The notes beneath the pieces were generated by a model. The model ran no database searches and was not told the origin of the DNA. It saw only the letters and a list, made by a program, of their open reading frames with translations. Shown in pieces: positions 1 to 17,244 of a stretch of DNA of 64,000 nt (its first letter is position 1; every line of letters starts with the position of its first letter). Where the stretch lies: assembly GCF_036067295.1 (NCBI RefSeq), contig NZ_CP107954.1, positions 2,108,001-2,172,000 on the forward strand, in the 5' to 3' direction. The translations under genes were made by a program, and so were the position numbers. The DNA comes from Kribbella sp. NBC_00382. Lineage in GTDB: Bacteria > Actinomycetota > Actinomycetes > Propionibacteriales > Kribbellaceae.

Positions 1-470
1 TACCGGTCAACAGCGGGTTGCCCGAGCACGAGCGTGGCCGCGTCAGCGCCGGACGGGAACGAGGTGACGAGGATCGGCTCACGCCCTGGCGTCCACCAGC
101 TGTCCAGCGCCTCGTCCTCGATGTGCAGTCCGAGCGTCTCGGCGGTGATCCGCAGGATGCCCTGAACGGTGACCGTGCCGTCGAGGAAGGTTTTCACGTA
201 GCGCAGCAGGTGCTCGCGGAACTCCTCCACCGACTCGTCCGGCCGCGGCGCCAGCCCGTACAGCGCACCGAACAACCTGAGGTCCTGGATCACCGATTCG
301 CCGGCGTCGGCGAAGTCGACCCAGTGCGATCGCATCACCGCGACCAGGCTGTTCTCGGCCGCCTGCAACTCACCGCCGTACGCGTCCGCCAGCGCCCGCA
401 GCGCGGACGGATCGCCCAGCGTCCGGAACGTCGGCGGCAGGTTCGCGAGGATGCGGTCGGCCTTAGGCAC
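1..470 (-). CDS. Tail protein I-like baseplate component of the contractile injection system (partial)
   Basis: Only the first 156 codons are visible; the gene runs off the left edge. The GTG start at 468-470 overlaps the end of the baseplate J gene by 8 bases, so the two are translationally coupled. The N-terminus (ADRILANLPPTFRTLGD) resembles phage tail protein I / wedge proteins, which begin with a short helix followed by a 'LP..YR' type motif, and the position directly after the J-like gene is where gpI-type proteins sit in Mu, P2 and injection-system clusters. It would link the baseplate wedge to fibre proteins. The fold assignment is inference from position and weak motif similarity; the coding call itself is secure because the frame is open throughout. 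Confidence 0.6.
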   Translation of the reverse strand, partial: MPKADRILANLPPTFRTLGDPSALRALADAYGGELQAAENSLVAVMRSHWVDFADAGESVIQDLRLFGALYGLAPRPDESVEEFREHLLRYVKTFLDGTVTVQGILRITAETLGLHIEDEALDSWWTPGREPILVTSFPSGADAATLVLGQPAVDR

Positions 471-2043
471 CCGGGGCCTCCTGGCAGGCGACGTCCGCCG
501 CGGTCATGTCGAGCGCGATCCACCACTGCTCGCCGTCGACGGTCGCCGAGACGCTGAAGGTGCCCGCCTCGATCTCCTCGTCGGTGGCCGGTACGCCGGT
601 AGGCCCGAGCAGCAGCGAACGGTCGGGGATCCGCGCACCGGTGGGAGCCTGCGAGCCGGCAGTCTCGACTGCGGCCGTCAGCGCGGCGCGCAGACCATCG
701 GCGGGCGCGGTGGCGACCGCGGTGAGCAGAGCGTCGATCAACGTGCCGTCACCGGTATCGCCGGACAGGTCGGCCCGGGCGACGACGACATCCACGATGG
801 TGGCGTCGAGGATGTCGTCGACACCCTTGACCGCGGTGAGCAGGGCCGCGCCGTCCGCGGCGCCACCGGCGGTGAGGCCGTCGACGACCGCTTGCAACGC
901 GGCCACCACGTCCGCGGCGATCTGGGCCTGCCCGGCCGCCGAGATGTTGGGGGTGATCGTGGCCGTGATCCGCGGGGTGATGAAGACGTACCGCGCGACC
1001 AGCGTCGCCAGTACTCCGGCCGCCCGGGTCTCGTGCACGGCAGCCGTCAGACCGGGCAGCCGTTCGGGCTCGGCATCTACCACCACGGTGACCGTGCCCG
1101 GGTCCGACCGGTTGGCCGGCGGGCCGTTCGGATCGAAGAACTCGACCGGCTCGCCGTCGCCCTCCAGGATCACCCGTTGGAGCGCCATGATCGTCGCCTT
1201 GCCCAACGCGCCCAACGCCGCCCGGGCCCGGTCGCGCAGTTCTTCGTCCGTCTCATCGGCCGCCGCGCGGATGGTCGGATCGAGATTCGTGACGCGTTCG
1301 ATCCCACCCACCCGCTGGGACATCTCGTTGATCACGCCGGCCGCCACCAGCCCCGCGTCACCCGCGAACCCGATGTCGGCCCGGACCGGTACGTCGATCC
1401 GCACCTGGCCGCGCTGCAACGTCCGCTGCTGGGTCGAGACGAAGACGACTCCACCACCGGACAGCCTGGTCCCCACCGGGATGGTGATGTTGCCGTCGAA
1501 ACCGGTGGAGCGGAAGAAGGTGATCAGCCCTTCGGCGAACTCGGCCGACTTGCGATGGACATCCAGAATCGACACCACGTAGTCCAGCGACTTGCCCTCC
1601 GCGGTATCGACGAACGCGGACTCGTAGGCCAGGTTGATCTGCTGGTAGACCGTGGCGATCTCCCGCCCGACCGCCTCGGACAGCGTCCGGGTCACGCTGC
1701 CGACATTGATGTCGCTCAGCGGCGAGCGGCTCTCGATCCGGAAGTAGTCGACGTAGAAGGTGGTGTCGCCCTTCGGCAGGGTGCCGTCCTCGAGCCAGAT
1801 CACCACATTCGTCCCGGCGCCGAAGGTGAAGTCGATGTCGAGCACGAACGTCCGGGGCTTGCCGTCCTCCGCGGTACCGGTGATCCCGCGGACGCCGCCC
1901 GCCGGCTCGGCCAGCGGGTAGGTCAGCACCTTGACGTCGAACTCGATCGGCTCGTTCACGACGCCGCCGACGACCGAGGTGAGGATGTCGTCGACCAGAT
2001 CGCCGTACGGGCGGTGGATCAGCGTTGCGGTGTCACCGTTCAT
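463..2043 (-). CDS. Baseplate J-like wedge protein (gpJ / T4 gp6 / Afp11 family)
   Basis: This 526-aa protein is a wedge subunit expected to form the ring around the hub that triggers sheath contraction. The central region shows the signature of the baseplate J family: GNITIPVGTRLS followed by FVSTQ around residues 187-208, then ETDEELRDRARAALG around residues 265-280. The C-terminal third is a tandem alpha/beta region rich in Ala and Val, as in long J proteins. The ATG at 2041-2043 overlaps the stop of the gp25-like gene by 4 bases. At 526 aa it is longer than P2 gpJ (about 300 aa) and closer to eCIS J proteins. No frameshift was seen. Confidence 0.88.
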   Translation of the reverse strand: MNGDTATLIHRPYGDLVDDILTSVVGGVVNEPIEFDVKVLTYPLAEPAGGVRGITGTAEDGKPRTFVLDIDFTFGAGTNVVIWLEDGTLPKGDTTFYVDYFRIESRSPLSDINVGSVTRTLSEAVGREIATVYQQINLAYESAFVDTAEGKSLDYVVSILDVHRKSAEFAEGLITFFRSTGFDGNITIPVGTRLSGGGVVFVSTQQRTLQRGQVRIDVPVRADIGFAGDAGLVAAGVINEMSQRVGGIERVTNLDPTIRAAADETDEELRDRARAALGALGKATIMALQRVILEGDGEPVEFFDPNGPPANRSDPGTVTVVVDAEPERLPGLTAAVHETRAAGVLATLVARYVFITPRITATITPNISAAGQAQIAADVVAALQAVVDGLTAGGAADGAALLTAVKGVDDILDATIVDVVVARADLSGDTGDGTLIDALLTAVATAPADGLRAALTAAVETAGSQAPTGARIPDRSLLLGPTGVPATDEEIEAGTFSVSATVDGEQWWIALDMTAADVACQEAPGA

Positions 2044-2534
2044 GCCACGCTCCCGCCGAGGTCGACCGGTATCACCAGGTTCAGTGGAGTGGCTTCGCCG
2101 ATGGGCAGCACCACCGCCACGATCTCCAGCCAGGTCTCGCCGCTGAGGTCGACCCGGCCGGCCCGGCGCGCTCCGCGGCCCGTCTTCACCGTCACCGACT
2201 GCACCGCCGCGATCCGCGGTTCACCCTGCAGCGCTTGCAGGGCGAAGAGTTTGGCGCGGTTGCGGATGGCCTCGGTGTCCGGCTCACCGACCAGCTCGTG
2301 CAGCCGGCTGCCGTACTCCGGATGGCCGAGGTGGGCCAGTTCGCCGACCTGGGTGAGGAAGCGCAGCAGCAACGCCTGCTGGAGGTCCTCCTTGCCGGTC
2401 AGCCGCTGCAGGTCGGCCTTCGACGAGACCGGCCGGTTCGCGGTCAGCAGATCGGTGCCGCGCTCGCGTTGCTCGGCGAACTCCAGATCGCCCAGCAACC
2501 GCAGGTCGGCGCCGAACAGAGCGTCGGGTTCCAT
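2040..2534 (-). CDS. gp25/gpW-like baseplate wedge protein
   Basis: A 164-aa wedge protein of the gp25-like (gpW/lysozyme-like) family, which anchors the first sheath ring to the baseplate. The family signature is seen in the internal stretch LLLRFLTQVGELAHLGHPEYGSRL interrupted here for length: the LLxRF..xxGE..xxPxYGSxL pattern is present at about residues 55-80. ATG at 2534 is preferred over the adjacent GTG at 2537 because AGGAGG then lies 5 bases upstream. It ends in a 4-base overlap with the J-like gene. The N-terminal 35 residues (DLRLLGDLEFAEQRERGTDL) contain the conserved D..L.....D region. Gene order PAAR, gp25, J matches known injection systems. Confidence 0.8.
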   Translation of the reverse strand: MEPDALFGADLRLLGDLEFAEQRERGTDLLTANRPVSSKADLQRLTGKEDLQQALLLRFLTQVGELAHLGHPEYGSRLHELVGEPDTEAIRNRAKLFALQALQGEPRIAAVQSVTVKTGRGARRAGRVDLSGETWLEIVAVVLPIGEATPLNLVIPVDLGGSVA

Positions 2535-2553
2535 CACAGCCTCCTAGTGCTGG

Positions 2554-2886
2554 TCACGGCGGCCAGCCGTCCGTGAGGTAGGTGGCCGCGGGTGGGCCGA
2601 GCACGAGCAGTACTCCGGGGGGCGAGGGGATCCGGTCGCCGACCCGGACCAGCGCCTTGCCGCCGACCTTGACGCCGGAACTCGCCAGCGGCCCGATCAC
2701 CAGCGGATAGGGCACACCGGTGAACGAGTTGACCATCAAGCAGATCGAGCCGCTGGTGGCCAACGGCATCCCACCGGCGGTGACGAACGGCGGCAGCACC
2801 ACCATGATCGTCCCGCTGTCGGGCGCGCCGGCGGCACCAGGCGTCACCATCACCGACGCCCCCACCGACACCGGCAATCCCGGCAT
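2554..2886 (-). CDS. PAAR-like tip protein
   Basis: A 110-aa protein placed directly after the gpV-like spike gene, where the membrane-piercing tip is encoded. It has the repeated glycine-rich turns of PAAR-like/DUF4280 proteins: MPGLPVSVGASVM at the N-terminus, a central VTAGGMPLATSGSICLM, then GVKVGGKALVRVGD. The usual metal-binding His residues of classical PAAR repeats are not evident, so it is a PAAR-like variant. The ATG at 2884-2886 follows GGGAGG with 6-base spacing, which makes it a better start than the GTG five codons upstream. It probably sharpens the spike and may carry effectors. The family assignment is by pattern, so moderate confidence. Confidence 0.68.
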   Translation of the reverse strand: MPGLPVSVGASVMVTPGAAGAPDSGTIMVVLPPFVTAGGMPLATSGSICLMVNSFTGVPYPLVIGPLASSGVKVGGKALVRVGDRIPSPPGVLLVLGPPAATYLTDGWPP

Positions 2887-2962
2887 ACCGACCTCCCCCA
2901 CTCACAATCTGCCCCTCCCCTTCCTACGCACCCCCGGTCTCCCCGCCGTCTCGCCCGCGTCT

Positions 2963-3769
2963 TCACGGGCTGAACGAGGTGGTCCCCTGGACCGTGACGC
3001 TGGTGCCTTTGAGGGTTGCGCCGGCCCCGCCTTCGACGGTGGCCTGGAGGCTGCCCTTGAGGGTGGCCCGGGAGCTCGCCTCGACGGACACGTTGCGGCC
3101 GGCCTTGAGGGTGATGTTGCCGTTGGCCTCGAGGGTCAGGTCCTGGGCTGCCTTGAAGGAGACCGAGCCGGCTGAGTCCAGTACGACGTCGCCGTCCTGG
3201 GTGAGAGTGATGGTCGTGCGGCCGGCCGTCACCTTGACCGTGCCGCCGCTCTCGCCGGACTGGTCGAGTTTCAGTTCGGTCTTGCCGGCCGTCGCGGTGA
3301 CCGTTCCGTCGATGATCCGGACGGTGATCTTCGGTGGCATCTCGATCACGAGCTCGCGGGCCGGGTCCTGGTCCTGGTGGTTCCGGATCGCGCCCAGGAC
3401 CGACTTGTCGTCCGCCTCGGCGAGCGGCAGCCGGAAGACGAGCTCGCCGGTCGTCGACAGCGGTGGGCGGTCGACATCGTCGTACAGCCGGGCGATCACG
3501 ATCGGCGCGTTCACGTCACCGTGGTCGTAGGCGAGCAGCACCAGGTCGTTCACGTTCGGGATCGCGACGCTGCCGACATGTCCGGTGCCGACCGGGACGC
3601 GTTTCAGCTCCAGTCCGCTGCCGCGCAGCTTGACGTCGACGCCGTAGTTGTCGTCGTCGTCCTTCCCGGTGTGCGGGTGGACCGCGGTGACCACGCCGAG
3701 CTCGGTGGTCCGGTGCCCGGCCAGCTCGTCGCGGACGATCGCGGCGATGGTGTCGACGATGGTGCTCAC
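2963..3769 (-). CDS. Baseplate spike protein gpV/gp45-like (gp5 OB-fold plus beta-helix)
   Basis: A 268-aa spike subunit. Residues about 22-100 (ELGVVTAVHPHTGKDDDD onward) form the OB-fold of phage baseplate assembly protein V/gp5, including the conserved GDVNAPIVIARLYD segment that precedes the helix. Residues 155-262 are a repetitive beta-prism region in which short strands recur every 7-10 residues, alternating charged turns with V/T/L strands, for example LEANGNITLKAGRNVSVEA. The GTG start overlaps the stop of the hub gene by 4 bases. Most eCIS encode gp27 and gp5 parts as one VgrG-like protein; here they are separate genes, as in P2 and Mu. It is expected to trimerise below the tube. Confidence 0.85.
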   Translation of the reverse strand: MSTIVDTIAAIVRDELAGHRTTELGVVTAVHPHTGKDDDDNYGVDVKLRGSGLELKRVPVGTGHVGSVAIPNVNDLVLLAYDHGDVNAPIVIARLYDDVDRPPLSTTGELVFRLPLAEADDKSVLGAIRNHQDQDPARELVIEMPPKITVRIIDGTVTATAGKTELKLDQSGESGGTVKVTAGRTTITLTQDGDVVLDSAGSVSFKAAQDLTLEANGNITLKAGRNVSVEASSRATLKGSLQATVEGGAGATLKGTSVTVQGTTSFSP

Positions 3770-4791
3770 GGTGCCACCCCCTGCAGGCTGCGGAACTCGA
3801 CGTCGGTGATGAGCCCGCCGGCCTTGGTCAGCTGATGCCGGACGCCGCGGACCTGGTAGGTCCCTTCCAGCTCATCGACGCCGGCCTTGTCCGGGAAGCC
3901 TTCGAGCCGGATCAGGTCCCCGAGGAACAACTGCGGCCGGCCCTGAATCCGGACCCGCCCACGCAACGCCTGCTCGGTCAAGGTCTCGGCCGCCGAGGCC
4001 GCTACGGCCGCGGCGAGCTTGCTGGTCCGGACGGCCGGCCGCTCGATCAGCAGCATCGGCTTCGTCGTACCGGAGGTTCCGTGCCGCGGCCCGAAGTCCT
4101 TGGTCAGCCAGGCCCAGGACTCGTCGCCACCGGAGCCAGGGCTGTCTCCCCATACCTGCACGGTTCCCGCGCGCGGGCTGACCCGCTGGAGCTCAGCCGC
4201 CAGCACGTGCTCCCCGTACTTCAGCTTGTGCACCGTCCGATTCCCGCTGAACCCCTCGAACACCAGCTTGCCGTCAGCGGTGACGTAGGTGTCGAACCCG
4301 GCCAGATACGCCAGGTCCCGCAGGTGCCGCGCGATCGGCCGCCGCCCGTCGACCACGTACGCCGGGAACGGTGGCCCGTCTTCTACCGTGTCGACCTCGA
4401 TCCCCGCTTCGGACGCGAGCGCACGCACGATGTCGCCGGCCGTGGTGTCCTCGAACGTCTTGTCCACAAAGGTCTTCAGCAACTTGCCGCCACCCGAGTG
4501 GCCGGTGATCCGCTTGACCTCCAGTCCCGGCTCGACCGCGACCACGCTCCCGGTCAGCACCCGGAACAGTTGCTGGTCCTCATCGGCGTACCCGAGATCG
4601 ACCGACAGCTCATCACCAGGCTGCGCCCGCAACCCGCCGACCTGCCCCTGCCGCAACGTCACCGAGTCCGCGGGCGTATCGAGATCCAGCCGCACGGTCA
4701 ACTCGATCGCCGTACTGGCCTTCGCCTCGACCGTCGTATCGACGACCTTGTCCCCCACCACGATCCGGTACGCCGGCCGCAACATGCTCAC
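3766..4791 (-). CDS. Baseplate hub protein gpD / gp27-like (late control D family)
   Basis: A 341-aa hub protein that would sit as a trimer at the bottom of the tube and hold the spike. The N-terminal beta-barrel half (residues 1-110) includes LRAQPGDELSVDLGYAD and RVLTGSVVAVEPGLE, typical of the gpD/gp27 fold. The middle has the RHLRDLAYLAGFDTYVTADG stretch, matching the conserved 'LA...G......DG.L.F' region of late control D proteins. The C-terminus (ELEGTYQVRGVRHQLTKAGG) is the usual ending with V.H....GG. GTG start, overlapping the upstream 278-aa gene by 4 bases, and overlapping the gpV-like gene downstream in the same way. This pair replaces the fused VgrG of typical eCIS. Confidence 0.85.
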   Translation of the reverse strand: MSMLRPAYRIVVGDKVVDTTVEAKASTAIELTVRLDLDTPADSVTLRQGQVGGLRAQPGDELSVDLGYADEDQQLFRVLTGSVVAVEPGLEVKRITGHSGGGKLLKTFVDKTFEDTTAGDIVRALASEAGIEVDTVEDGPPFPAYVVDGRRPIARHLRDLAYLAGFDTYVTADGKLVFEGFSGNRTVHKLKYGEHVLAAELQRVSPRAGTVQVWGDSPGSGGDESWAWLTKDFGPRHGTSGTTKPMLLIERPAVRTSKLAAAVAASAAETLTEQALRGRVRIQGRPQLFLGDLIRLEGFPDKAGVDELEGTYQVRGVRHQLTKAGGLITDVEFRSLQGVAP

Positions 4792-5624
4792 GCGCCCCCG
4801 ATCCAGTCCCGCAGTACGCCGGGCAGCTGCTCGTCACGAACTCGCAGCTCCAACTCGGCTTGGTCCGCGAAGACCTCCGGTACGCCGATCCGGGTGGGCG
4901 CCTGCAGCAGATTCGGCACGAACGTCTCCAGCAACCGCTCCCGCAACGCCGAGCTGCCGGGATCGAAAGCGGCCCGGAACATCGCCCGCACCAGCCGCGC
5001 CCGCGACGGCGTCGGCAGCTCGCCGGTGACCGTCGCGTCCTCGTACGCCGCCAGCAGGTACGCGTCCTGCGCCTCGGTCCGCGACCGGCCGTCCTCCGCG
5101 ATCCGCATCAGCAGGTTGAAGCGATCCGCCGACGCGACGACCGCGTCCCGGACCTGCACCCAGACGAACCGGGCGAACAGCGCACCCGCCTCGGACCGAA
5201 CCCGATCCGCCTCTGCCAGCCACTGATCGGCCGTCATCGGCCGCCGCCCGGCCACCAGCCGCAGATCGGCCAGCACCACCTCGGCAACGACCAAAGAGGA
5301 GCAGTGCTCGTCGGATACCTGGCTCGCCAGGTCCGGACTCATCCCGTCGCAGAAGGCGACCAGCTCGGTCCCAGGGGCGGTCGGGACCGGCGCCCAGATC
5401 CCGTAGCTGTCGAAGACGAGCCCGCCACCGCCGTGTTCGACGATGGGCAGCTCGACCACGCCACTCGCCGCCACCGCGCCCTTGAAGGTCTCCAGCACCC
5501 GGACGCCGAGCGTGCCCGTCCTGCTGACTGCGCCCTGCCAGGCCGGGAGTTGCTCGTCCTCGATCCGCAAGTGCACGACCAGGCCGGCCGCGGCGTACTC
5601 CGAGATCACCGGTGTCGTTGTCAT
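4788..5624 (-). CDS. Uncharacterised injection-system cluster protein (278 aa)
   Basis: I do not recognise this family. The ATG at 5622-5624 overlaps the stop of the 1371-aa gene by 4 bases, and its own end overlaps the hub gene by 4, so it is firmly part of the baseplate operon. The first 110 residues are beta-rich (EYAAAGLVVHLRIEDEQLPAW is split by a tight turn, then GVVELPIVEHGGG), and the last 160 residues are strongly helical (QWLAEADRVRSEAGALFARF and later RARLVRAMFRAAF). It ends with ELRVRDEQLPGVLRDWIGGA. There is no signal peptide or membrane segment. An adaptor between the hub and the OmpA-like fusion is possible from position only. Confidence 0.75.
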   Translation of the reverse strand: MTTTPVISEYAAAGLVVHLRIEDEQLPAWQGAVSRTGTLGVRVLETFKGAVAASGVVELPIVEHGGGGLVFDSYGIWAPVPTAPGTELVAFCDGMSPDLASQVSDEHCSSLVVAEVVLADLRLVAGRRPMTADQWLAEADRVRSEAGALFARFVWVQVRDAVVASADRFNLLMRIAEDGRSRTEAQDAYLLAAYEDATVTGELPTPSRARLVRAMFRAAFDPGSSALRERLLETFVPNLLQAPTRIGVPEVFADQAELELRVRDEQLPGVLRDWIGGA

Positions 5625-8600
5625 AAGCGCGCATCCCTGGTGGCCAGCGGGACGGCCGCCGGGGGCCGGACCTCGACGGCGGCACCGGAGGCGACCACCG
5701 CCGGTGAGGTCTTGGTCTTGCCGGACAGCACCGTCTTGGGCGCGCTCACCTGGGTGATCGCGCCGGTCGCGATGTCCAGCGACCACTTCCCGTCGAGTTG
5801 CCAGTTGAGCCGCTCCAGCACGACGTACGACCGGTTGGCAGCCTGGACAGCGGGAGTCGCGACCGGGCTGGCGCCGCTGACCGCGTTCTGGTTGGTCCAC
5901 AGCACCAAGTGGCAGCTGAATCTGATCTTGACCTCCAGGCTGGACAGCTTCGCGGTGGCGAAGGTCGGGTGCGTCGGGCGGACGGCCCCGGCCGGGGCGC
6001 CCGGGCTGTCGACCGCCTCGACGATCCAGCGCTGCCCGGCCGGCTGGTTCGTCCGGGACCGGATCCGGCTCCGGCCGAGGGTCGCGGTGTCGCCACCGGC
6101 GCCTTCACCCGGCGTCCGGCCGGTGTCGAGGATCGCCGGCACGACCAGTGCGGGGGCGGGGTCGCCGGCCACGAACGAAGTGGCCGCCCCGGTCGCCAGG
6201 GCCCGGTTCGAGGCCAGCACGAAGGGGGCCGGGTGCACCTTGTTGGGTGTCACCGCCGGGTCGGTGTACGCGGCGTTGAAGGTGGTACCGGCGGTCAGGT
6301 TGTTGACCCAGCCGCCGAAGAACTGGCCGATGATCCGGCGCCCGTCGGCGCCACCGGTGACGACGTCCACCTGGGCGTTCATGTGCAGCGCGGCGGTGGC
6401 CGGGTTGGCGATGTCGAAGGACCCCGACGAGGTGGCGATCCCGCCGCCGACCACCGGGGCGACGGTGTGGTTCGCGTCGCTGGCGACCGAGCTGTCCAGG
6501 AACAGCGTGGCCTGGCCGAGCACCAGGTTCAGGATCCGGTTCGGCTCGCGGTCGATCTTGTGGTCGAAGATGCCGTTGCCGTTACCGTCCACGAACGGCC
6601 GGACGTGGAAGGTGCCGCAGTTGTCGGCCAGCAGGGTCGCCTGCAGATTGTTGCCGGTGACAACTTTCACGGTCGGCTTCTTGGCCGTGTGCAGGGCGAC
6701 GATCGCGGCCGCGTCGTCACCACCGTTCGCGGCGGGGATCCCGGAAGCGCGCTGGGCGTCCCAGCTGACCGGCGTACCGGCGGGTTTGACGTCGACCGTC
6801 AGGCGGACCGGTGCCGCGAGGGTGACGGCGTTCTCGAACAGCGGCAGTGGGAGGTTGACGGTCGGGTCCTCGTCGAAGCCCTTCGCGCCGACGGTGAAGG
6901 TGTGGTCGGCGGTCGGGCCGTTGGCCAGCCGGGCGATCTTCGGCGGCGTACCGGGGATGGTCGCGACCAGGTTGCTGAACTCGACCACCGTCATCCGGAC
7001 CCGGTCGCCGTCGACCTCCAGCCCGTCCACGCCGAGCTGGAACCCGGCATCGCGGATCGTGGTGCTGACCTTGGCGCCCTCCACCCAGAACTTCACCCCG
7101 GCGGCCGGGATCGGGGCGGGAACCTTGACGCTCGCGCCGAGCGAGGCTTGGCCGGCGGCGGCAACCTCGTCCGCGGCGGCGAAGAGCTTCTCGCGCGGCG
7201 TGGCGTCGAGGACGTCGAAGGCGCTGAGCACCAACGTGCCGGTGAAGCCGGCCGGCTTGGGCGGCCGGACGGTGATCATCGCGCGGCCGTGGTGCAGGTC
7301 GGTGTCCTGGAGGTGGACGAACCGGCCGGGGTTCATCTTGGTCGCGGCGGTCAGCGGCAACGGATCGGCGGCGGTTGAGGTGCGGCTCTGGTGCAGGTCG
7401 AGGAACAGTTCGACGGCCGTCATCGCCTTCTTCGCCGCCAGCCCTTTCTTGCCGTCGACGGTCAGGCTCAGGGTGAGCACGACATCGCCGACCTTGTCGC
7501 TCGCCTTCGCGCCCTCGGCGAAGATCGTCACGCCGGCCAGCAACTGCGCGCTGGTGAAGGTCGCGCCGCTGGCCACCACGCCACCGGCGGTGACCGCGTC
7601 GAAGAACTTGATCCGGTCGGCGAGCGCGATCGTCAAGGCTCCGGAACCGTTGAACGCGGTCGAGCACTTGAGCACGACGGGGCGCCGCGCCGGAACCGTC
7701 GTCGCCTTCTTCACCACGACCGCGTCCAGCCCGGTGACCGTCGGCTGCGGTGCCGGTGGAGGTGGTCCGGGCGGCGGGGCGGGCGGTTGGTCGAGGATGA
7801 TCTGTGGCTGCACGAACGCGACCGCCCGGTCGACCACGACGATGTCGGCGTCGGCCGAGCCGTCCAGCCGGAAGCAGACGGCGTTGCCCTTCACGTCGTC
7901 GAGGGACTGGGTTCCGGCGCTGACCACGAAGGGGCCGTCGACCTCGATGCTGAAGGTGCCGGGGCCTTTTTGTTTCTTGTACTCGAAGCTTCCGTCGGCC
8001 TGGGTCCGGCCGGGGATCGGGGTGCCGGCCGGAGTCGCGCCGGCGGTCTTGTGGGCCTCGTCGTCCATGTACTCGCCGTCGGCCGCGATCAGGATGTACT
8101 TGCCGACGAAGGGCGTGCCGTCCTCGAAGTGGATCCGGCCTTGGACCACAAAGGAACCCTGCTCGGCCGGCTTGCGGCACCAGGGACGCTTCGGGTCGGG
8201 TGGACCGGTCGGGCACGGTTTGTCCCACGGGACGACGAAGCAGTTGACGGCGGTCGCCGTACCGTCGTCGAGGCACCAGCCACCGCCGCCCGCGCCTTCC
8301 GGGACGAGGTCGAGCGTGACCGGTTTCGGTACCTGGCACGGCATCACAGGTTCGTGCACGAACATCAGCTCGGTCCGCCGGTTCGGCCGGTGGGCGTCCT
8401 CCGTGACGAACACCGGGTCCTGCTCGTTGCAGCCGAGCCAGCGCAACGGACCCGAGTCGCAGCCGGTCGCGTTCTTGTTCGGTAGCAGCCGGGCGGTGGG
8501 GAGGTTGAGCGGTTCGTGGCCGAGGTACGCCTCGATCAGGACCGGCCAGGTGGCGTCGCCGACGATGCCGTCGGCGGCCAGACCGTGGTCCTGCTGGAAC

Positions 8601-9736
8601 TTCTTGATCGCCGTGTCGGTGAGGGTGCCGTCCTCGCCGGACGTCTTGCCGACATTGCCGAGGTACAGGCCGAGGTCCTGCAGCATGTGCTGGATCTCGC
8701 GGGTCCCCCAGGTGTCCCGGACGGTGGTGATCGTGCCGCTCGGGCGTTCCTTGCGCAGCTCGTTCCACTCGGCGATCGACTTCTGCGGTTCGCTGCCGAA
8801 GGTCAGCATCGCGTACGTCGCCCGCCCGCGCCGCTCCGACAACGCCTGGTTGTACGCCGGTGAGCCGACCAGGTCGGTATGCCCGGAGATGACCAGTACC
8901 TCGTCGGGATGTTTGTCGGAGTACGCCGCCGCGGCCTGCAACACGTGTCGCAGGCACGGCTCGACGAATGCCTTGTCGAAGCGGAAATGGATCGCGAAGA
9001 CCGTACCGACCTTCGCCCCGCGCCGCAGGATGACCGTCACCGCCGCGACCTGGCCGTCCTGCACCTTCACCGCCGCCGAGCCGGTCAGAACCTCACGCTG
9101 ACCGGTCGGCGTCGCGGTGTCGTCGACCAGCGCGTCGACCGTGTACTCGCCGGCCGGGAAGGGGTCCTCGAACCAGACGTCCGGGCGAATCCGGTTGGTC
9201 AGGGTCCGGTCGAGCTCCTTCGTGGACTCGGTCTCGACCCCGTGCACGGTCAGCTTGACGCGATCCATGTCGAAGGCCGGATCGCCTTCCACCACGACCG
9301 TCACCGACAGCTTGCCGGTCTCCACGTCCGGCGGCGGTGGTGGCGGGATGATCACGTCCTCGGTGTCGATCTTCTCGGCCGGCAGGAACTCGCGCAGCGC
9401 GAACCGGTACTCGAACGCGTTCGGCCGGCCGGCCGCCTCGCGGACGTCCATCCGCTCGATCAGCACCCGGTCGACCAGCGTCGCCGAAGTGATGTCGGAG
9501 ACGAACGCGACCGGTTCGCCGGCGTGGAAACTCTTCCGCAGGTCAGCCAGGTGCGGCAGCGTGTCCGCGGCTGTCAGCACCCCGGTCAGCCGGACCTGGG
9601 CGGCGCGCCGGCCGAGGTCCTGCAGGAAGTCCCCCTCGAGCCCGGGGACCTGGTGGCGGGTGACCACCTGGTCCTCCCCGGTCTCGACCAGCTGGACCTG
9701 TTCCAGCTCGAGGTCTCCCAGCATCGGCCGGACCAT
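5621..9736 (-). CDS. Giant fusion: DNA-circularisation-N-like domain, OmpA-like domain, peptidoglycan-binding domain and long Ig-like tail
   Basis: A 1371-aa protein in the middle of the injection-system operon. Residues 1-125 resemble the 179-aa gene at 10186-10725, from MLGDLELEQVQLVE to the shared AGRP...F.Y...LREF motif. A proline run (IIPPPPPPD, near 130) leads into a beta domain, then an OmpA C-like domain at about 245-320 with FRFDKAFVEP, SGHTDLVGS and NQALSERRGRATY. A peptidoglycan-binding-1 repeat follows at about 340-395 (REIQHMLQDLG, IKKFQQDHGLAADGIVG). A Cys-containing region (about 425-540) and a second proline linker near 650 precede some 700 residues of beta-sandwich-like sequence. 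There is no signal peptide. It may tie the particle to the cell wall or act in a spike or fibre role. Coding is certain; the role is inference. Confidence 0.85.
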   Translation of the reverse strand: MVRPMLGDLELEQVQLVETGEDQVVTRHQVPGLEGDFLQDLGRRAAQVRLTGVLTAADTLPHLADLRKSFHAGEPVAFVSDITSATLVDRVLIERMDVREAAGRPNAFEYRFALREFLPAEKIDTEDVIIPPPPPPDVETGKLSVTVVVEGDPAFDMDRVKLTVHGVETESTKELDRTLTNRIRPDVWFEDPFPAGEYTVDALVDDTATPTGQREVLTGSAAVKVQDGQVAAVTVILRRGAKVGTVFAIHFRFDKAFVEPCLRHVLQAAAAYSDKHPDEVLVISGHTDLVGSPAYNQALSERRGRATYAMLTFGSEPQKSIAEWNELRKERPSGTITTVRDTWGTREIQHMLQDLGLYLGNVGKTSGEDGTLTDTAIKKFQQDHGLAADGIVGDATWPVLIEAYLGHEPLNLPTARLLPNKNATGCDSGPLRWLGCNEQDPVFVTEDAHRPNRRTELMFVHEPVMPCQVPKPVTLDLVPEGAGGGGWCLDDGTATAVNCFVVPWDKPCPTGPPDPKRPWCRKPAEQGSFVVQGRIHFEDGTPFVGKYILIAADGEYMDDEAHKTAGATPAGTPIPGRTQADGSFEYKKQKGPGTFSIEVDGPFVVSAGTQSLDDVKGNAVCFRLDGSADADIVVVDRAVAFVQPQIILDQPPAPPPGPPPPAPQPTVTGLDAVVVKKATTVPARRPVVLKCSTAFNGSGALTIALADRIKFFDAVTAGGVVASGATFTSAQLLAGVTIFAEGAKASDKVGDVVLTLSLTVDGKKGLAAKKAMTAVELFLDLHQSRTSTAADPLPLTAATKMNPGRFVHLQDTDLHHGRAMITVRPPKPAGFTGTLVLSAFDVLDATPREKLFAAADEVAAAGQASLGASVKVPAPIPAAGVKFWVEGAKVSTTIRDAGFQLGVDGLEVDGDRVRMTVVEFSNLVATIPGTPPKIARLANGPTADHTFTVGAKGFDEDPTVNLPLPLFENAVTLAAPVRLTVDVKPAGTPVSWDAQRASGIPAANGGDDAAAIVALHTAKKPTVKVVTGNNLQATLLADNCGTFHVRPFVDGNGNGIFDHKIDREPNRILNLVLGQATLFLDSSVASDANHTVAPVVGGGIATSSGSFDIANPATAALHMNAQVDVVTGGADGRRIIGQFFGGWVNNLTAGTTFNAAYTDPAVTPNKVHPAPFVLASNRALATGAATSFVAGDPAPALVVPAILDTGRTPGEGAGGDTATLGRSRIRSRTNQPAGQRWIVEAVDSPGAPAGAVRPTHPTFATAKLSSLEVKIRFSCHLVLWTNQNAVSGASPVATPAVQAANRSYVVLERLNWQLDGKWSLDIATGAITQVSAPKTVLSGKTKTSPAVVASGAAVEVRPPAAVPLATRDARL

Positions 9737-10185: not shown

Positions 10186-10725
10186 TCACGGCAGGTCTGC
10201 CGCGAACTTGGTCAGCCGGTCCAGCAGTTCGTTCAGCGGCTCGACGAACCGCTCCAGACCGGTCGCGAACGGCACGGCGAAGTCGAGCCCGTCCAGTACG
10301 CCGCCCAGCAGGTCGGTCGCGTCGCCGAGGATGTCGTCGCCGAGTGGGTCCGCGGCGGCCGGCTCGACCGGTTCGATGAACTCCCGCAGGGTCAGCACGT
10401 ACCCGAACCGGTCGGGCCGGCCGGCCAGCTGCCGGACCTGCAGGTCGTCGATCAGTACTGCGTCGATCGCGCAGTCGGTGGTGATGTCCGCGACGAACGG
10501 AACCGCCTTCCCGGTCCGCAGGTCCTTCTTCAACGTCTCGACCAGCTCCAGCGCCTTCGGGTCGGTGGCGACGCCGGTCACCGTGACGGTCGTCGGCGCC
10601 CGCCCGAGGTTCTGCAGCAGGCTGCCGTCCTTGCCGATCGGTTTGTGCTCCGCCAGCGCCCGGCGATCGCTGGTCCCGATCTCCTGTACCTGCGGCAGTT
10701 CGGTGCCCGCCAACATCGGCCGCAT
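10186..10725 (-). CDS. DNA-circularisation N-like baseplate/tail protein
   Basis: A 179-aa protein whose first 125 residues match the style of the phage DNA-circularisation protein N-terminal domain (Mu gpN-like): a Gly-Arg after 'LLQNL', then VTVTGV, a PFVADIT segment, and the closing AGRPDRFGYVLTLREF. The last 50 residues (from EPVEPAAADPLG) form a separate amphipathic helix region ending in LNELLDRLTKFAADLP. The start of the 1371-aa protein is a diverged copy of the same domain. In Mu-like phages this protein sits between the tape measure and the hub. In most eCIS the corresponding position carries a LysM protein, which is absent here. The ATG is 3 bases downstream of the preceding stop codon. 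Confidence 0.75.
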   Translation of the reverse strand: MRPMLAGTELPQVQEIGTSDRRALAEHKPIGKDGSLLQNLGRAPTTVTVTGVATDPKALELVETLKKDLRTGKAVPFVADITTDCAIDAVLIDDLQVRQLAGRPDRFGYVLTLREFIEPVEPAAADPLGDDILGDATDLLGGVLDGLDFAVPFATGLERFVEPLNELLDRLTKFAADLP

Positions 10726-10728
10726 CCC

Positions 10729-11955
10729 TCACACCTCGATCCCGTACCGCCGAGCCGCGTCCCCGAGCACCCGCTCCAGCACCCGCTCCACATCCGAGTC
10801 ATCCCAACCACCAGGCCCACCCGCCCGACCCACCTCATCCGACTCCGCCGACCTGTCCGGCTCACCCGGCCATCCCGACCGCCCCGACTCACCCGGCCAT
10901 CCCGACCCAGCCGACCGACCCGACCCGACCGACTGCCCCGACCCGATCGGCTCACTCGGCTCACTCGGCTGACCCGGCTCACTCAGCCCCGCCAGCCCAC
11001 TCGACCCAGGCAGCCCACCAGGCCCATCCGACTCACCCGACCAGCCCGACCTCGGCTGCTCGCTCAAACCGCCCGACCTACCCGACTCGCTCCGCTCACC
11101 TGCCGCGTCCGCCCTGCCCCGTCGGCCCGCCCGGGCCCGTCCCCCCGAACTCCCCAGCTCTGGCCCGCGCCGCTCGACCTCCGGTGCCGTGTCCGCCCAG
11201 CCCGACGGCAACCTGTCCGAGCCCGCCATACGCGACCCGGGCCCCGGCGCCTCGGCACCGCCCGTCGCCGGCCCACCGCGCACGCCTTCACGCGAACCGG
11301 ACTCCGAGCTCCCGGAGAGACGGCCGTCCTCGATGCCAGCAGGACCTGCCTCAGCCGGTTCTTCCACCAGCCGTAGCCGATTCAGCAACTCCGCGGGCGC
11401 CATCTGACCACCCCGCGGCGCGCACCGCAGTACGTCGAGAAGCCGATCCGGCTCAGCAGCGATCCGCCGTCCCACCGCCGCACTCAGCAGCGCCGGGACC
11501 TCACCGGCCTCAACCACCCGTTCCGGCACCCCGGACGGACAGTCCGCCGCCCCAACCGCCCGGAGCCGCGGCCGCCGTACCGGCCAAGGATCCGCCCGGG
11601 GTACCGCCTCCGTCCGCTGTGGCGCCTGGGCCAGCGCACGGAGCCGCCTTTCGTCAACAAAACAAGCCGATTCACCGACCACAGCAACCGAAGGGCCGCC
11701 GTCTACCTCAGGCGTGGCCACCCTCCGCCGCTTCCTGGACGGTTCCACTACCGCACAAGCCGCCTGCTCTGTCTCCTCCACCACTTCAGCCGGCGATCCC
11801 ACCCCGAGCAACCGGATACCACCCAGACTCGGCACTGGTACCGCGGCGGCCCGGCAGGCCCGGACGGCCGGCCCGAGGCGATCCAGCCGGTCCGCCTCCT
11901 CCTGCATCTTGTTGCGCCAGGCAACCAATGCGCCGGCGTGGGCGAGGGCGGACAT
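10729..11955 (-). CDS. Injection-system protein with long Gly/Ser/Pro-rich disordered linker
   Basis: A 408-aa protein with three parts. Residues 1-190 are helical and rich in Arg, Ala and Pro, beginning MSALAHAGALVAWRNKMQEE. Residues about 190-385 are low complexity, with many SGWPGE, GRSG and SEPS units and almost no hydrophobic residues. The last 24 residues return to ordered sequence (DVERVLERVLGDAARRYGIEV), a helical end like those of several phage and injection-system proteins whose C-terminal helix docks on a partner. ATG at 11953-11955 overlaps the upstream stop by 4 bases. The frame keeps clear third-position GC bias through the linker, which supports real translation. Function unknown. 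Confidence 0.75.
   Translation of the reverse strand: MSALAHAGALVAWRNKMQEEADRLDRLGPAVRACRAAAVPVPSLGGIRLLGVGSPAEVVEETEQAACAVVEPSRKRRRVATPEVDGGPSVAVVGESACFVDERRLRALAQAPQRTEAVPRADPWPVRRPRLRAVGAADCPSGVPERVVEAGEVPALLSAAVGRRIAAEPDRLLDVLRCAPRGGQMAPAELLNRLRLVEEPAEAGPAGIEDGRLSGSSESGSREGVRGGPATGGAEAPGPGSRMAGSDRLPSGWADTAPEVERRGPELGSSGGRARAGRRGRADAAGERSESGRSGGLSEQPRSGWSGESDGPGGLPGSSGLAGLSEPGQPSEPSEPIGSGQSVGSGRSAGSGWPGESGRSGWPGEPDRSAESDEVGRAGGPGGWDDSDVERVLERVLGDAARRYGIEV
10800..11385 (-). repeat. Low-complexity coding repeat (Gly/Ser/Pro linker)
   Basis: On the plus strand this appears as runs of CCCGAC, CTCACC and CCGACC hexamers with 6-18-base periodicity, for example ACCCGGCCATCCCGAC occurring twice between 10865 and 10910. 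Read on the minus strand it gives degenerate SGWPGE/PGRSG/SEPS repeats inside the 408-aa protein. It is prone to length change by slippage. Confidence 0.7.
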
Positions 11956-12398
11956 CAGCTGACCTCGGCGCTGCGGCCGGCCATCTCGACGTACATCAGG
12001 ATCTGGCCGACCGTCATCGCGCTGACCTCCTCCGGGGTCCAGCCGAACTCGTCGGCGAGCACGAAGCACGCCTTGGCCAGCGGTGTCTGGACCAGCTCAC
12101 CGAGCCGGTCGCGGGGCGTGTCGATCCCGCTCAGCTCGTTGATCCGGTCGACCAGGAAACGCGCCAGCCCGGCCGGCAACCGGCCGGCCTGGTCCACCGT
12201 CAGAACCGGTTCGACCAGCGCCTGCTGGATCATCAACCCGGCCGCCAGCTCGCGGTCGTCGCGGGAGGCGTGCGCGATCCGTTGCACGTCCCGGACGGTC
12301 AGCGGCCGGATGGTGACCGCACCGGCCGGTCCGCCGGGTGGCAGCTCGACCTCGTGGGTGAGCGCGCTTCCGGCCAGCAGATCGTCCGCGGTGAGCAT
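11955..12398 (-). CDS. Tail assembly chaperone-like protein
   Basis: A 147-aa protein placed directly after the tube gene, where phage tails and injection systems encode a small assembly chaperone. Its sequence starts MLTADDLLAGSALTHEVELP, then TIRPLTVRDVQRIAHAS, the type of short beta hairpin plus helices seen in phage tail assembly proteins, and ends with FGWTPEEVSAMTVGQILMYVEMAG, where the 'W....V..MT..Q...Y' pattern is familiar from T-chaperone-like proteins. The ATG at 12396-12398 is chosen because it lies 10 bases after the tube stop; upstream codons would lie within the tube gene. Family call is by position and pattern. Confidence 0.62.
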   Translation of the reverse strand: MLTADDLLAGSALTHEVELPPGGPAGAVTIRPLTVRDVQRIAHASRDDRELAAGLMIQQALVEPVLTVDQAGRLPAGLARFLVDRINELSGIDTPRDRLGELVQTPLAKACFVLADEFGWTPEEVSAMTVGQILMYVEMAGRSAEVS

Positions 12399-12408
12399 GG
12401 CGCCGGCC

Positions 12409-12963
12409 TCAGGCGAAGGCGACGTTGGTTGGCGGCGCCTCGCCACCACCGGCGTCGCCGCCGGAGCCGTCCCGGTCGACGACCCGGACGGTCAGCGCCT
12501 TGAAGCACAGGTTCTCCATCACGAACTCGTCCTCGGGCAGCGACCAGCTCCAGTTGGAGAATTTCACCCCACCCAGCTCCAGGCTGAGCGAGTTGGCCGG
12601 CCGGGCCGGATCGCTCAGCCGCAGCGTGATGCTGAAGGTCGGTTGCACGTACGGCTCCGGCGTCGCGGTCGGGGTCGCGCCCCGGCCGAGCAGCAGGAAC
12701 AGCAACGCGCCGTTCACGTACGCCCGGCCGACCGTGCCCGAGATCGCGATGTCGCCCGGACTGAGCGAGACCGGGTGCCTACGGCCGACCTCGTAGAACT
12801 CCTTCAGCGCGGTGTCGACGCGGACCTTCACGTCGCTCAGCCGGCCGACGGTCTGGATCGCGAACGTGTCGACGATGGCCTTCGCGTCCGCGCCTTCCGG
12901 CGTGTCCTCGCTGGCCAGCGTGAGGGTGCCGTGCGCACCCGTGAACACCTCTGTGAGTGCCAT
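12409..12963 (-). CDS. Tail tube protein
   Basis: A 184-aa protein immediately downstream of the sheath gene. The body has the alternating beta pattern of tube proteins, with VKVRVDTALKEFYEVGRRHP, SPGDIAISGTVGRAYVNGAL and the C-terminal YVQPTFSITLRL...FVMENLCFKALTVRVVDRDG, which matches the conserved closing strands (E...F.ALTV...D) of T4 gp19-like and FII-like tubes. A Gly/Ala-rich tail follows. Only one tube paralogue is visible, whereas many eCIS carry two or three. ATG at 12961-12963, with AAGGAC as ribosome-binding site, is 14 bases after the sheath stop. It would polymerise into the hexameric inner tube. Confidence 0.78.
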   Translation of the reverse strand: MALTEVFTGAHGTLTLASEDTPEGADAKAIVDTFAIQTVGRLSDVKVRVDTALKEFYEVGRRHPVSLSPGDIAISGTVGRAYVNGALLFLLLGRGATPTATPEPYVQPTFSITLRLSDPARPANSLSLELGGVKFSNWSWSLPEDEFVMENLCFKALTVRVVDRDGSGGDAGGGEAPPTNVAFA

Positions 12964-12977
12964 GACTGTCCTTACCG

Positions 12978-14648
12978 TTAGCCGAGGAAGATGGTGACGA
13001 CGATGAAGTCGATGCTGAAGGTCGGCAGGATGACGAGGTCGACCAGCGCGCGGCCGCGGATCTCGTCGTCCCGGCTGGCGTGCACGTCGAGCTGGTAGCT
13101 GACCAGCATCTCGCTGGTCACCATCGACGCCAGGAAGCCGTTGATCGTCGCTCGCAACGCGCCCCGGACCCGCTCGTTGTTCAGCAGCCCGATGTACGGC
13201 GTGGCCGCGGACCGGACGCCGAGCTTGGCGTAGTCGACGATCCGCCGGGTGGTGATCTGCGTCCACGCGGTGTTCGTCGAGGTGGTGATGCCCTTCACGA
13301 CCCGGAAGCCCTGCCGGTTCTCCAGGGTGAGCACCCGGCTCAGCACGAGTTGCTTGAGTTCCGCGTTGCTGAAGTCGTGCTCCAGCTTGTCGACCGCGAG
13401 CACCTTGTTGGTGAGGCTGATGTGCGCCGGCTGCGACGCCAACAGCCCGGCCACTGCGGCGGCGGCGTACGTGCCCGGCAGTACTACGGGCAGCGGCGGG
13501 CTCTGAGATCGGTCGGCTGTGCCTATGCCGGGTCCGACGAACAGGAGGCGGTCGCTGTTGAGGCTGTGGGCCGACGTGTTCGACAGGAACGTCGGACGGT
13601 CGGTGGCAGGCGCAGTACCGACTACTGCGATCCGCTCCCGCTTGATCTCGTCACCGGAGGCTGCCGCGCAGTGTGCTGCGAGGTCGTCGCCGAAGGTCTG
13701 GTCTTGTCCGGCCGCGACGATGATGTGCGCTTCTACGCCGAGCAGCGCGTCCAAGCCTGTCTGGTAGTCGGCACCCGCGGCACCGTTCGCCCCGCCGACA
13801 AATGGAGTCGCAGTAACCGCGTCGGGCAGCTCATCCGGGTGGTAGGCCGCAGGAGCCGGTGGCGAGGCCGGTGCTGACCCACTGACGAGTGCTGAGTTCG
13901 CCAGGTCGGAGATGAGGTCGTCGCCGGAGACGACGCTGTAGGTCTCCTCCGCCTGGATGCCGAGCTTCACGGTGACCTTGCGGGCGGCCGACTTGGCCAC
14001 TGTGTAAGTGGCAAGCACTACATCGCCGGCAGCAGGAGCAGTACCGAAGGTCAGCTCGCCACTCGCTGTGTTGACGCCTACCTGAGTCGGGTTGGGCGGC
14101 GCGTCGTAGACGATGCCCGGCACTTGGTCAGCACCACCAGCAGAGGGCCGTACGACGATCCGGTTGGTCGCGCTCTGGATCACGGGTGCGTGCGCGAGTG
14201 TCGGCGGCGTACCGGCGACCTCTTCGCTGCGGACCTGGGCGTTGGTGTCTGCGGTCGACACTGCGACTGTGAGCGCGTTGCCCCAGGTGCCGGGCGACTT
14301 GGCGGTCAGCTGCACACAGGGTCCACCAGGCGAGGCCAGGTCGACCACTGCGGGCGCAGCGTTGTTGTCGGCGATCCGTACCGCCCAGACGGTCGTGGCG
14401 CCGTACTTGTAGGCCTGTTCGATCGCCCGGGTCAGCGTGAGCTCGCCGGAGGCACCGTCGACCCAACGGTCGTAGCCGCCGTACTTCGTCAGCGCGTCGG
14501 GGTAGCTACCGAGCACCTGCGGTACGCCGATCGGGCCTTTGCCGGCCGTGCCGACGACTCCCAGGTTTCCGACGGTGACGGCACCGGGGACGATGAGTGC
14601 CTCGGGTCGCACCTCGATCAGTACGCCGGGCAGAACTGCTTCGGTCAT
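12978..14648 (-). CDS. Contractile tail sheath protein
   Basis: A 556-aa sheath subunit. The N-terminus PGVLIEVRPE...VPGAVTVGNLGVVGTAGKGP is the classic start of contractile sheath proteins (PGVY..E......I....T...FVG.A..GP). The C-terminal sheath domain is equally clear: VVKGITTSTNTAWTQITTRRIVDY, then ATPYIGLLNNERVRGALRA and YQLDVHASRDDEIRGRALVDL (each read in pieces), ending in strands IDFIVVTIFL that swap with the next ring. An insertion of about 200 residues in the middle is usual for long sheaths. The ATG overlaps the upstream stop by 4 bases. Contraction of this sheath is the power stroke of the machine. Confidence 0.95.
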   Translation of the reverse strand: MTEAVLPGVLIEVRPEALIVPGAVTVGNLGVVGTAGKGPIGVPQVLGSYPDALTKYGGYDRWVDGASGELTLTRAIEQAYKYGATTVWAVRIADNNAAPAVVDLASPGGPCVQLTAKSPGTWGNALTVAVSTADTNAQVRSEEVAGTPPTLAHAPVIQSATNRIVVRPSAGGADQVPGIVYDAPPNPTQVGVNTASGELTFGTAPAAGDVVLATYTVAKSAARKVTVKLGIQAEETYSVVSGDDLISDLANSALVSGSAPASPPAPAAYHPDELPDAVTATPFVGGANGAAGADYQTGLDALLGVEAHIIVAAGQDQTFGDDLAAHCAAASGDEIKRERIAVVGTAPATDRPTFLSNTSAHSLNSDRLLFVGPGIGTADRSQSPPLPVVLPGTYAAAAVAGLLASQPAHISLTNKVLAVDKLEHDFSNAELKQLVLSRVLTLENRQGFRVVKGITTSTNTAWTQITTRRIVDYAKLGVRSAATPYIGLLNNERVRGALRATINGFLASMVTSEMLVSYQLDVHASRDDEIRGRALVDLVILPTFSIDFIVVTIFLG

Positions 14649-16998: not shown

Positions 16999-17244
16999 AG
17001 CAGAAACCTCCCCCCACACGACCAGCGACCCGGGCGCCTCTGCGACCCCGGTCCCCCCGCCGGCCGAACACACCGCCGGCACGCAACGTCCGGCCCCCCG
17101 AGCGGCGCGTGTGATTGGTGTCCTTCCAGGATGCGCGCCCCGGTCGCTCCCGGCAAGATGCGAGCGGCGGCCCGATTTCCCCTTGATTTACGGGAGGTTC
17201 CGCGTCTTGCCTGCTTGAAGCGAGTGTTCGACTGATGAAAAGGC

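What the first reader, a model, noticed from the sequence alone, without database searches (positions are those of the whole stretch)
5621..9736. Injection-system protein fused to OmpA-like and peptidoglycan-binding domains
One 1371-aa frame joins a tail-baseplate domain with OmpA-like, peptidoglycan-binding and several beta-sandwich parts. This would place a tail particle in contact with peptidoglycan, an unexpected property in a cell-envelope context lacking an outer membrane. It could anchor the machine to the wall, recognise target cells, or be a long spike.
Basis: partly seen in the sequence, partly recalled or inferred. Interest (0 to 1): 0.75.

Follow-up and report, generated by a model that had tools for sequence, protein, structure and literature searches.

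The report
Injection-machine baseplate protein with wall-binding domains
A soil bacterium's phage-tail-like injection machine has a baseplate protein that carries two cell-wall-binding domains and a huge extra tail; the same fusion is conserved in six other species, so it is real, but what it grips has not been tested.

Summary
The gene lies on the MINUS strand (window 9736 to 5621, 1371 aa). It sits inside a contractile injection system (CIS) cluster of a bacterium inferred to be a Kribbella. The N-terminus (aa 1-120) is a tube-initiator domain (Mu gp43/DNA_circ_N type) and has a 179-aa stand-alone paralogue two genes upstream. It is followed by a beta-rich domain, a Pal/OmpA-type domain and a PG_binding_1 domain. 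The latter sits at about aa 340-402, probably inserted inside the OmpA fold. Then come a Cys-rich stretch, two repeated Ig-like sandwiches and about 440 aa with no recognised relative.

Six other actinobacterial species carry the same full-length fusion (57-79% identical) in the same gene order. The wall-binding block is the most conserved part, and the OmpA peptidoglycan-contact pair (D288/R303) is invariant.

Phage Mu gp43 and AlgoCIS Alg7 already pair this tube-initiator domain with a LysM module. So the theme is known; the OmpA plus PG_binding_1 swap and the giant tail are a new variant. No cluster protein tested has a transmembrane segment, which argues against a T6SS-like self-anchor.

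Most likely it is a baseplate skirt that grips the wall of a cell from outside. A purely structural role, or binding to the producer's own wall, is not excluded. Structure prediction was too poor to help.

The parts
5621..9736 (-). 1371-aa CIS baseplate protein with tube-initiator, OmpA-type, PG_binding_1 and long beta-rich C-terminal region
9377..9736 (-). aa 1-120: tube-like / tube-initiator domain (DNA_circ_N, GpU, Dit-like)
   Evidence: Pfam on isolated domain; phrog_184 baseplate hub in 14 of 16 family members, best 9e-9; 42% identical to 179-aa neighbour
9017..9319 (-). aa 140-240: beta-rich (Ig-like?) domain after a PPPPPP linker
   Evidence: sequence; only weak DUF4493/FnIII-type hits; strands in a low-confidence model
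8792..9001 (-). aa 246-315: OmpA/Pal-type domain, main part, with invariant D288 and R303
8531..8719 (-). aa 340-402: PG_binding_1 domain
8351..8464 (-). aa 425-462: probable C-terminal strand of the OmpA fold (RPNRRTELMFV), split off by the PG_binding_1 insertion
   Evidence: collinear weak second match in 5u1h and 4b5c; small gain when spliced; suggestive only
8162..8296 (-). aa 481-525: conserved Cys-rich segment (C488, C508, C520 invariant)
7367..7756 (-). aa 661-790: Ig-like beta sandwich, fold similar to the middle domain of protein-arginine deiminases
   Evidence: local pLDDT mostly 67-88 with two weaker blocks; VIA-align Z 10-11 over about 120 residues; Ig_7 weak
6947..7369 (-). aa 790-930: probable second copy of the same sandwich
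   Evidence: hhalign E 2.4e-4, probability 44%
5624..6946 (-). aa 931-1371: least conserved part, no recognised relatives; a DGNGNGxFDxxIDRE loop at about aa 1050 resembles a calcium-binding loop
9741..10157 (-). 138-aa helical protein in the tape-measure position, ends 4 bases before the 1371-aa gene
10186..10725 (-). 179-aa stand-alone paralogue of aa 1-120 (first tube-initiator layer, Alg5-like by inference)
10729..11952 (-). about 407-aa low-complexity ORF with a short conserved C-terminal motif
11955..12449 (-). 164-aa tail assembly protein
12409..12960 (-). tail tube protein
12978..14648 (-). contractile sheath
4788..5618 (-). 276-aa protein of unknown family between the tube initiator and the hub
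3766..4791 (-). gpD/VgrG-type hub
2963..3769 (-). spike (OB-fold, Phage_base_V)
2554..2901 (-). PAAR tip protein
   Evidence: weak
2040..2537 (-). gp25-type sheath initiator
463..2043 (-). baseplate J wedge protein

Best explanation
It is a structural baseplate protein of a soluble contractile injection particle. Its N-terminal domain forms, with its sisters, the second tube-initiator ring above the hub, where Mu gp43 and Alg7 sit. In those proteins a LysM part reaches out to the wedges. Here the reach-out part is a beta-rich domain, an OmpA-type domain carrying an inserted PG_binding_1 domain, and a long beta-rich tail. About six copies (inferred from gp43) would give the baseplate a skirt of peptidoglycan-gripping arms. 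After the particle leaves a lysed producer and the fibres make first contact, the OmpA/PG_binding_1 heads bind stem peptides and glycan of an exposed Gram-positive-type wall, seat the baseplate on the wall and may help to trigger firing. Shown: the fusion, its conservation, its place in the cluster, the domain families and the kept OmpA contact residues. Inferred: ring position and copy number, peptidoglycan binding, action from outside, and any role in triggering.
For: N-terminal domain matches DNA_circ_N, GpU and phrog_184 baseplate hub and has a 42% identical stand-alone paralogue two genes upstream, as expected for two tube-initiator layers. The gene lies directly upstream of a 276-aa gene and then hub, spike, PAAR, gp25 and J. 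PG_binding_1 E 1.8e-13, Pal E 5.9e-11, OprF OmpA domain E 8.5e-10. D288 and R303, spaced 15 apart as are Asp271 and Arg286 of A. baumannii OmpA that bind diaminopimelate (PMC6969976), are invariant in 7 of 7. The wall-binding block has 58-71% invariant columns against 29-38% in the last 700 aa, which fits a kept function. All seven species carry the fusion with the same gene order. None of the 17 cluster proteins tested has a transmembrane segment, so the particle is probably soluble. A tail-fibre-like gene is present (inferred from sequence); a 2026 survey links fibres in Actinobacteriota to extracellular use (PMC12923769). One ortholog host is a Cellulomonas; the type species of that genus has ornithine instead of diaminopimelate (PMC3035266), yet the contact pair is kept, a weak hint that the target need not be the producer's own wall.
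Against: No binding, localisation or particle data exist. In Alg7 the LysM domain is described as contacting the wedges (PMC8894135), so a wall-binding-type fold in this position may be purely structural. Both AlphaFold jobs gave mean pLDDT of 35-37, so ring placement and domain exposure are untested. No lysis gene was recognised in the cluster. The tail-fibre assignment is weak (no Pfam hit).
Confidence: 0.45

Rival explanations
1. Structural rival: the OmpA-type and PG_binding_1 folds have been recruited as scaffold that links the tube-initiator ring to the wedges, as LysM does in Mu gp43 and Alg7, and do not bind peptidoglycan in the assembled particle.
For: LysM in Alg7 extends out and contacts the wedges (PMC8894135); Mu gp43's helix-rich LysM part contacts the wedges (PMC11915804). 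The protein occupies the same slot. A scaffold role would also explain high conservation.
Against: The OmpA ligand pair D288/R303 and most of the GHTDxxGxxxYNQxLSERR motif are kept in 7 of 7, which a pure scaffold need not keep. Two unrelated wall-binding families together, one nested next to the other, is hard to explain by scaffolding alone.
Confidence: 0.25
2. Self-wall rival: the protein tethers particles to the producer's own peptidoglycan, either in ghost cells after lysis or during programmed death, as proposed for the peptidoglycan-binding protein BN159_7588 of the Streptomyces davawensis CIS.
For: S. davawensis CIS cluster encodes a peptidoglycan-binding protein that binds its own mycelium (PMC11126660). 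Streptomyces CIS act inside the producer (PMC12237407). Kribbellaceae walls contain LL-diaminopimelate (PMC6113628), a possible ligand.
Against: No transmembrane segment in any cluster protein tested and no obvious signal peptide, so no route to the wall of an intact cell. A fibre-like gene is present. The contact pair is kept in a Cellulomonas host, whose genus type species has an ornithine wall.
Confidence: 0.2
3. Cargo rival: the long C-terminal region is an effector that rides on the tube-initiator domain and is carried into the target, with the wall-binding block guiding it.
For: It is the second largest protein of the cluster found here, its C-terminal 440 aa vary most between species, and actinobacterial CIS have large effectors next to the baseplate (PMC11126660).
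Against: No catalytic family, motif or toxin domain was found. The fold match of aa 661-775 is to the non-catalytic middle domain of arginine deiminases only. Effector C-termini usually change wholesale between species; here all seven stay alignable.
Confidence: 0.07

Closest known systems
Phage Mu gp43 (DNA circularisation protein, tail tube initiator)
   Same: DNA_circ_N-type tube-like N-terminal domain, gene placed just before hub and spike genes, peptidoglycan-binding-type module in the C-terminal part
   Different: Mu has a helix-rich domain with LysM; here there are beta-rich, OmpA-type and PG_binding_1 domains and about 900 more residues
AlgoCIS Alg5/Alg7 tube-initiator pair (eCIS Afp5/Afp7)
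   Same: two tube-initiator paralogues, one of them with a wall-binding-type C-terminal extension
   Different: Alg7 carries one LysM that contacts the wedges; no LysM was recognised here, and the extension is about 1250 aa
OmpA/Pal peptidoglycan-binding domain (PF00691; OprF, Pal, ArfA/Rv0899)
   Same: GHTDxxGxxxYNQxLSERR motif with the diaminopimelate-contact Asp and Arg
   Different: placed in a phage-tail-like baseplate protein without signal peptide; probably interrupted by a PG_binding_1 domain
Streptomyces davawensis CIS protein BN159_7588
   Same: peptidoglycan-binding protein encoded in an actinobacterial CIS cluster and proposed to attach particles to the envelope
   Different: a separate gene at the cluster end, partnered with a receptor-binding protein, not fused to a tube initiator
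T6SS TssL/TagL-type OmpA anchors
   Same: OmpA-type wall anchor linked to a contractile machine
   Different: those are membrane proteins of the envelope complex; no membrane segment exists here

Membership tests
DNA_circ_N / gp43-type tube initiator | tube-like N-terminal domain | tested here: met
   DNA_circ_N 23.0 bits over cut-off 21 on the isolated domain; phrog_184 in 14 of 16 members of the family alignment
DNA_circ_N / gp43-type tube initiator | gene located just upstream of the hub and spike genes | tested here: met
   276-aa gene, then hub 3766-4791 and spike 2963-3769 follow directly
DNA_circ_N / gp43-type tube initiator | hexameric ring at the tube end | not testable with these tools
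   structure prediction failed (mean pLDDT 37); complex not modelled
Alg7/Afp7-type LysM tube initiator | C-terminal LysM domain | tested here: not met
   no LysM match in Pfam, PHROGs or NCBIfam; OmpA and PG_binding_1 instead
OmpA/Pal domain (PF00691) | beta-alpha-beta-alpha core with GHTD...RR motif | tested here: met
   30.6 bits over cut-off in the genome search; Pal E 5.9e-11; OprF 5u1h E 8.5e-10; 7 of 7 orthologues match
OmpA/Pal domain (PF00691) | conserved Asp/Arg pair that holds diaminopimelate | tested here: met
   D288 and R303 invariant, spacing 15 as Asp271/Arg286 (PMC6969976)
OmpA/Pal domain (PF00691) | complete fold including the last strand | tested here: inconclusive
   weak collinear match of aa 418-452; splicing out the insert adds only about 2-5 bits; C part alone finds nothing
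OmpA/Pal domain (PF00691) | binds peptidoglycan | not testable with these tools
   needs a sacculus pull-down
PG_binding_1 (PF01471) | profile match over cut-off | tested here: met
   50.9 bits, cut-off 23; 7 of 7 orthologues
Contractile injection system | sheath, tube, gp25, J wedge, hub, spike in one cluster | tested here: met
eCIS (Afp-type) | AAA+ ATPase and long tape measure in the cluster | tested here: inconclusive
   no AAA+ protein or long tape measure recognised in the part searched; only a 138-aa helical protein
T6SS OmpA-type anchor (TssL/TagL) | transmembrane segment | tested here: not met
   max 19-residue hydropathy 1.41 in this protein; no transmembrane-like segment in the 17 cluster proteins tested

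The most novel reading that the evidence does not exclude
A lineage of actinobacterial contractile injectors has turned its tube-initiator ring into a peptidoglycan-gripping skirt with a split OmpA/PG_binding_1 head. It recognises the naked Gram-positive wall as its docking surface and couples wall engagement to firing: a docking principle not described for CIS in the papers I could search.
Probability: 0.25. Interest if true: 0.75.

Novelty: new variant of a known kind. Interest (0 to 1): 0.5.

Why it matters
How CIS of single-membrane bacteria dock on a thick wall before firing is open; Streptomyces systems are explained by a membrane adaptor (CisA) or a separate wall-binding protein. Here a candidate wall-docking module is fused to a core baseplate ring protein and strongly conserved, with a defined residue pair that makes the idea directly testable in harmless soil bacteria or with recombinant fragments.

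Tried and rejected
AlphaFold of aa 1-640 and 661-1371 with 7-row alignments gave mean pLDDT of 37 and 35. Only aa 661-775 was usable, so no fold search was run on the first half. Phage and plasmid tblastn with the whole protein gave no match; with the OmpA/PG block only generic endolysin, Pal and OmpA hits. The best plasmid hit, a Clostridiaceae plasmid, lies among hypothetical genes with no CIS. Viral contig scans with the whole protein and both halves gave no relative except one PG_binding domain. The Saprospirales and Psychroflexus hits of the genome scan are generic OmpA matches. Wider samples of class and phylum found no further fused protein, nor did a Nocardioides-like genus sample, which lacked a positive control. 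Two class-wide searches failed on the server. The PDB profile search with the N-terminal family gave only chance NusA matches. An arginine deiminase catalytic reading of the C-terminus was considered because and rejected: no deiminase family match. A frame-shift or chimera artefact was rejected by seven full-length orthologues. The 'long spike' reading was rejected because the spike genes are separate.

Full report
WHAT IS THERE. The reported interval holds one ATG frame of 1371 aa, but on the minus strand (9736 down to 5621); the plus strand there has many stops. The frame has the codon signature of a real gene (third-position GC 0.93). The window is G000:C1:2108001-2172000 of one 8.49-Mb contig. 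One same-genus genome with the gene has a contig of 50214 bases, identical in length to the Kribbella catacumbae DSM 19601 scaffold, and the Actinopolymorpha alba contig matches in the same way. I infer genus Kribbella; the record itself is unnamed.

DOMAINS. Aa 1-120 match DNA_circ_N (23.0 bits over cut-off 21 as an isolated segment), with weaker Dit-like, DUF6046 and P2 GpU matches. Aa 2-119 are 42% identical to a 179-aa protein at 10186-10725. Aa 246-315 are an OmpA/Pal-type domain: just under the Pfam cut-off in the whole protein (25.7 against 27.2), over it in the genome search (30.6), Pal E 5.9e-11, OprF 5u1h E 8.5e-10, and found in 7 of 7 orthologues. Aa 346-398 are PG_binding_1, E 1.8e-13.

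The rest of the OmpA fold seems to come after that insert (aa 425-462, RPNRRTELMFV). The profile finds it as a weak collinear second piece in 5u1h and 4b5c. Cutting the insert out lengthens the match to 7-118 of the profile on E. coli OmpA and adds about 2-5 bits over the N-terminal part alone, while the C part alone finds nothing. I call the split OmpA suggestive, not shown. A local test against five OmpA proteins in hand did not gain from splicing.

Aa 661-775 are a confidently modelled beta sandwich whose fold resembles the non-catalytic middle domain of arginine deiminases (Z 10-11, about 120 residues); a shared fold shows no function. Aa 790-930 look like a second copy (hhalign E 2.4e-4, probability 44%). 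Aa 931-1371 have no recognised relatives.

CONTEXT. The gene sits in a co-directional run with gaps of a few bases: SARP-type regulator (16093-17082), unknown 637/451 aa, sheath, tube, 164-aa assembly protein, low-complexity ORF, 179-aa initiator, 138-aa helical protein, this gene, 276-aa unknown, hub, spike, PAAR, gp25, J. Beyond the window follow a 1460-aa protein, a fibre-like 313-aa protein and a 1300-aa protein. No transmembrane-like segment exists in the 17 cluster proteins tested.

CONSERVATION. Full-length orthologues lie in K. catacumbae, A. alba, Nocardioides soli, two Occultella and Cellulomonas massiliensis, 57-79% identical, all with the same neighbours in the same order. The gene is rare and patchy: 2 of 38 Kribbella genomes counting our own and no other hit in samples of the class and the phylum. 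Invariant columns across the seven are 53% in aa 1-120, 58-71% in the OmpA/PG_binding_1 block, and 29-38% in the last 700 aa. D288 and R303 are invariant and spaced like Asp271 and Arg286 of A. baumannii OmpA, which bind diaminopimelate (PMC6969976). More distant CIS clusters in G036, G048 and G058 have the initiator domain as a stand-alone 201-213 aa protein and no OmpA or PG_binding part in the proteins scanned, so the fusion looks derived after duplication of the initiator.

MECHANISM. Mu gp43, the DNA_circ_N prototype, is the hexameric tail tube initiator; its tube-like domain starts the tube and its helix-rich part with a LysM module reaches down to the wedges (PMC11915804). AlgoCIS has two initiator layers, Alg5 and Alg7, and Alg7 has a C-terminal LysM extending out to the wedges (PMC8894135). 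The 179-aa protein and this protein fit those two layers. Here the LysM slot is taken by a beta-rich domain, an OmpA/PG_binding_1 head and a long beta-rich tail. I think the head grips peptidoglycan of a cell approached from outside, because the ligand residues are kept, the block is the most constrained part, and the cluster has no membrane route to the producer's own wall. Steps not shown: copy number, exposure of the head, binding, target, and coupling to firing.

RIVALS. The best rival is that the folds are structural, as LysM appears to be in Alg7. Next is attachment to the producer's own wall, for which S. davawensis BN159_7588 is a precedent (PMC11126660). A cargo reading is unlikely. 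The Cellulomonas argument (ornithine wall in the type species, PMC3035266, with the contact pair kept) is a weak hint against strict self-recognition, because the strain itself was not checked and OmpA-type domains may tolerate other diamino acids.

NOVELTY. Tube initiators with a peptidoglycan-binding-type module are known. An OmpA-type plus PG_binding_1 head and a 1250-aa extension on a tube initiator did not turn up in the papers searched, a limited open-access library. I rate it a new variant of a known kind.

Noticed in passing
9741-10157 (minus): A 138-aa helical protein occupies the tape-measure position; it is conserved in all seven species (68-86% identical) and far shorter than usual tape measures. 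No long tape measure or AAA+ ATPase was recognised in the cluster, so length control of this CIS is unclear.
   Followed up: partly
10729-11952 (minus): ORF of about 407 aa with Gly/Ser/Arg/Pro-rich, hardly alignable middle but a conserved C-terminal end (ERVLERVLGDAARRYGIEV and close variants in five of the seven loci).
   Followed up: partly
L035:16088-20000 into window 1-470 (minus): 1460-aa protein of the same cluster with many tandem modules (weak Flagellin_IN hits), conserved in five orthologous clusters.
   Followed up: no
L035:11234-15136 (minus): 1300-aa protein at the cluster end with a DUF5679-type Cys motif and a C-terminal helix-hairpin-helix; long orthologues in K. catacumbae and A. 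alba clusters; could be a surface or effector protein.
   Followed up: no
window 7367-7756 (minus), aa 661-790: Beta sandwich whose best structural matches are all the middle domain of protein-arginine deiminases (Z 10-11), without any deiminase catalytic match elsewhere in the protein.
   Followed up: partly
window 5624-9736 (minus): Seven invariant cysteines (C261, 426, 436, 488, 508, 520, 621) in a protein without signal peptide; a hint of disulfides or a metal site acting outside the cell.
   Followed up: no
L046:624-5456: A different CIS cluster in an Actinopolymorphaceae genome (G048) carries a 1610-aa RHS-repeat protein between its large tape-measure-like gene and the hub.
   Followed up: no
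window 16093-17082 (minus): SARP-family regulator next to the CIS operon, also next to the orthologous clusters, a likely controller of its expression.
   Followed up: no
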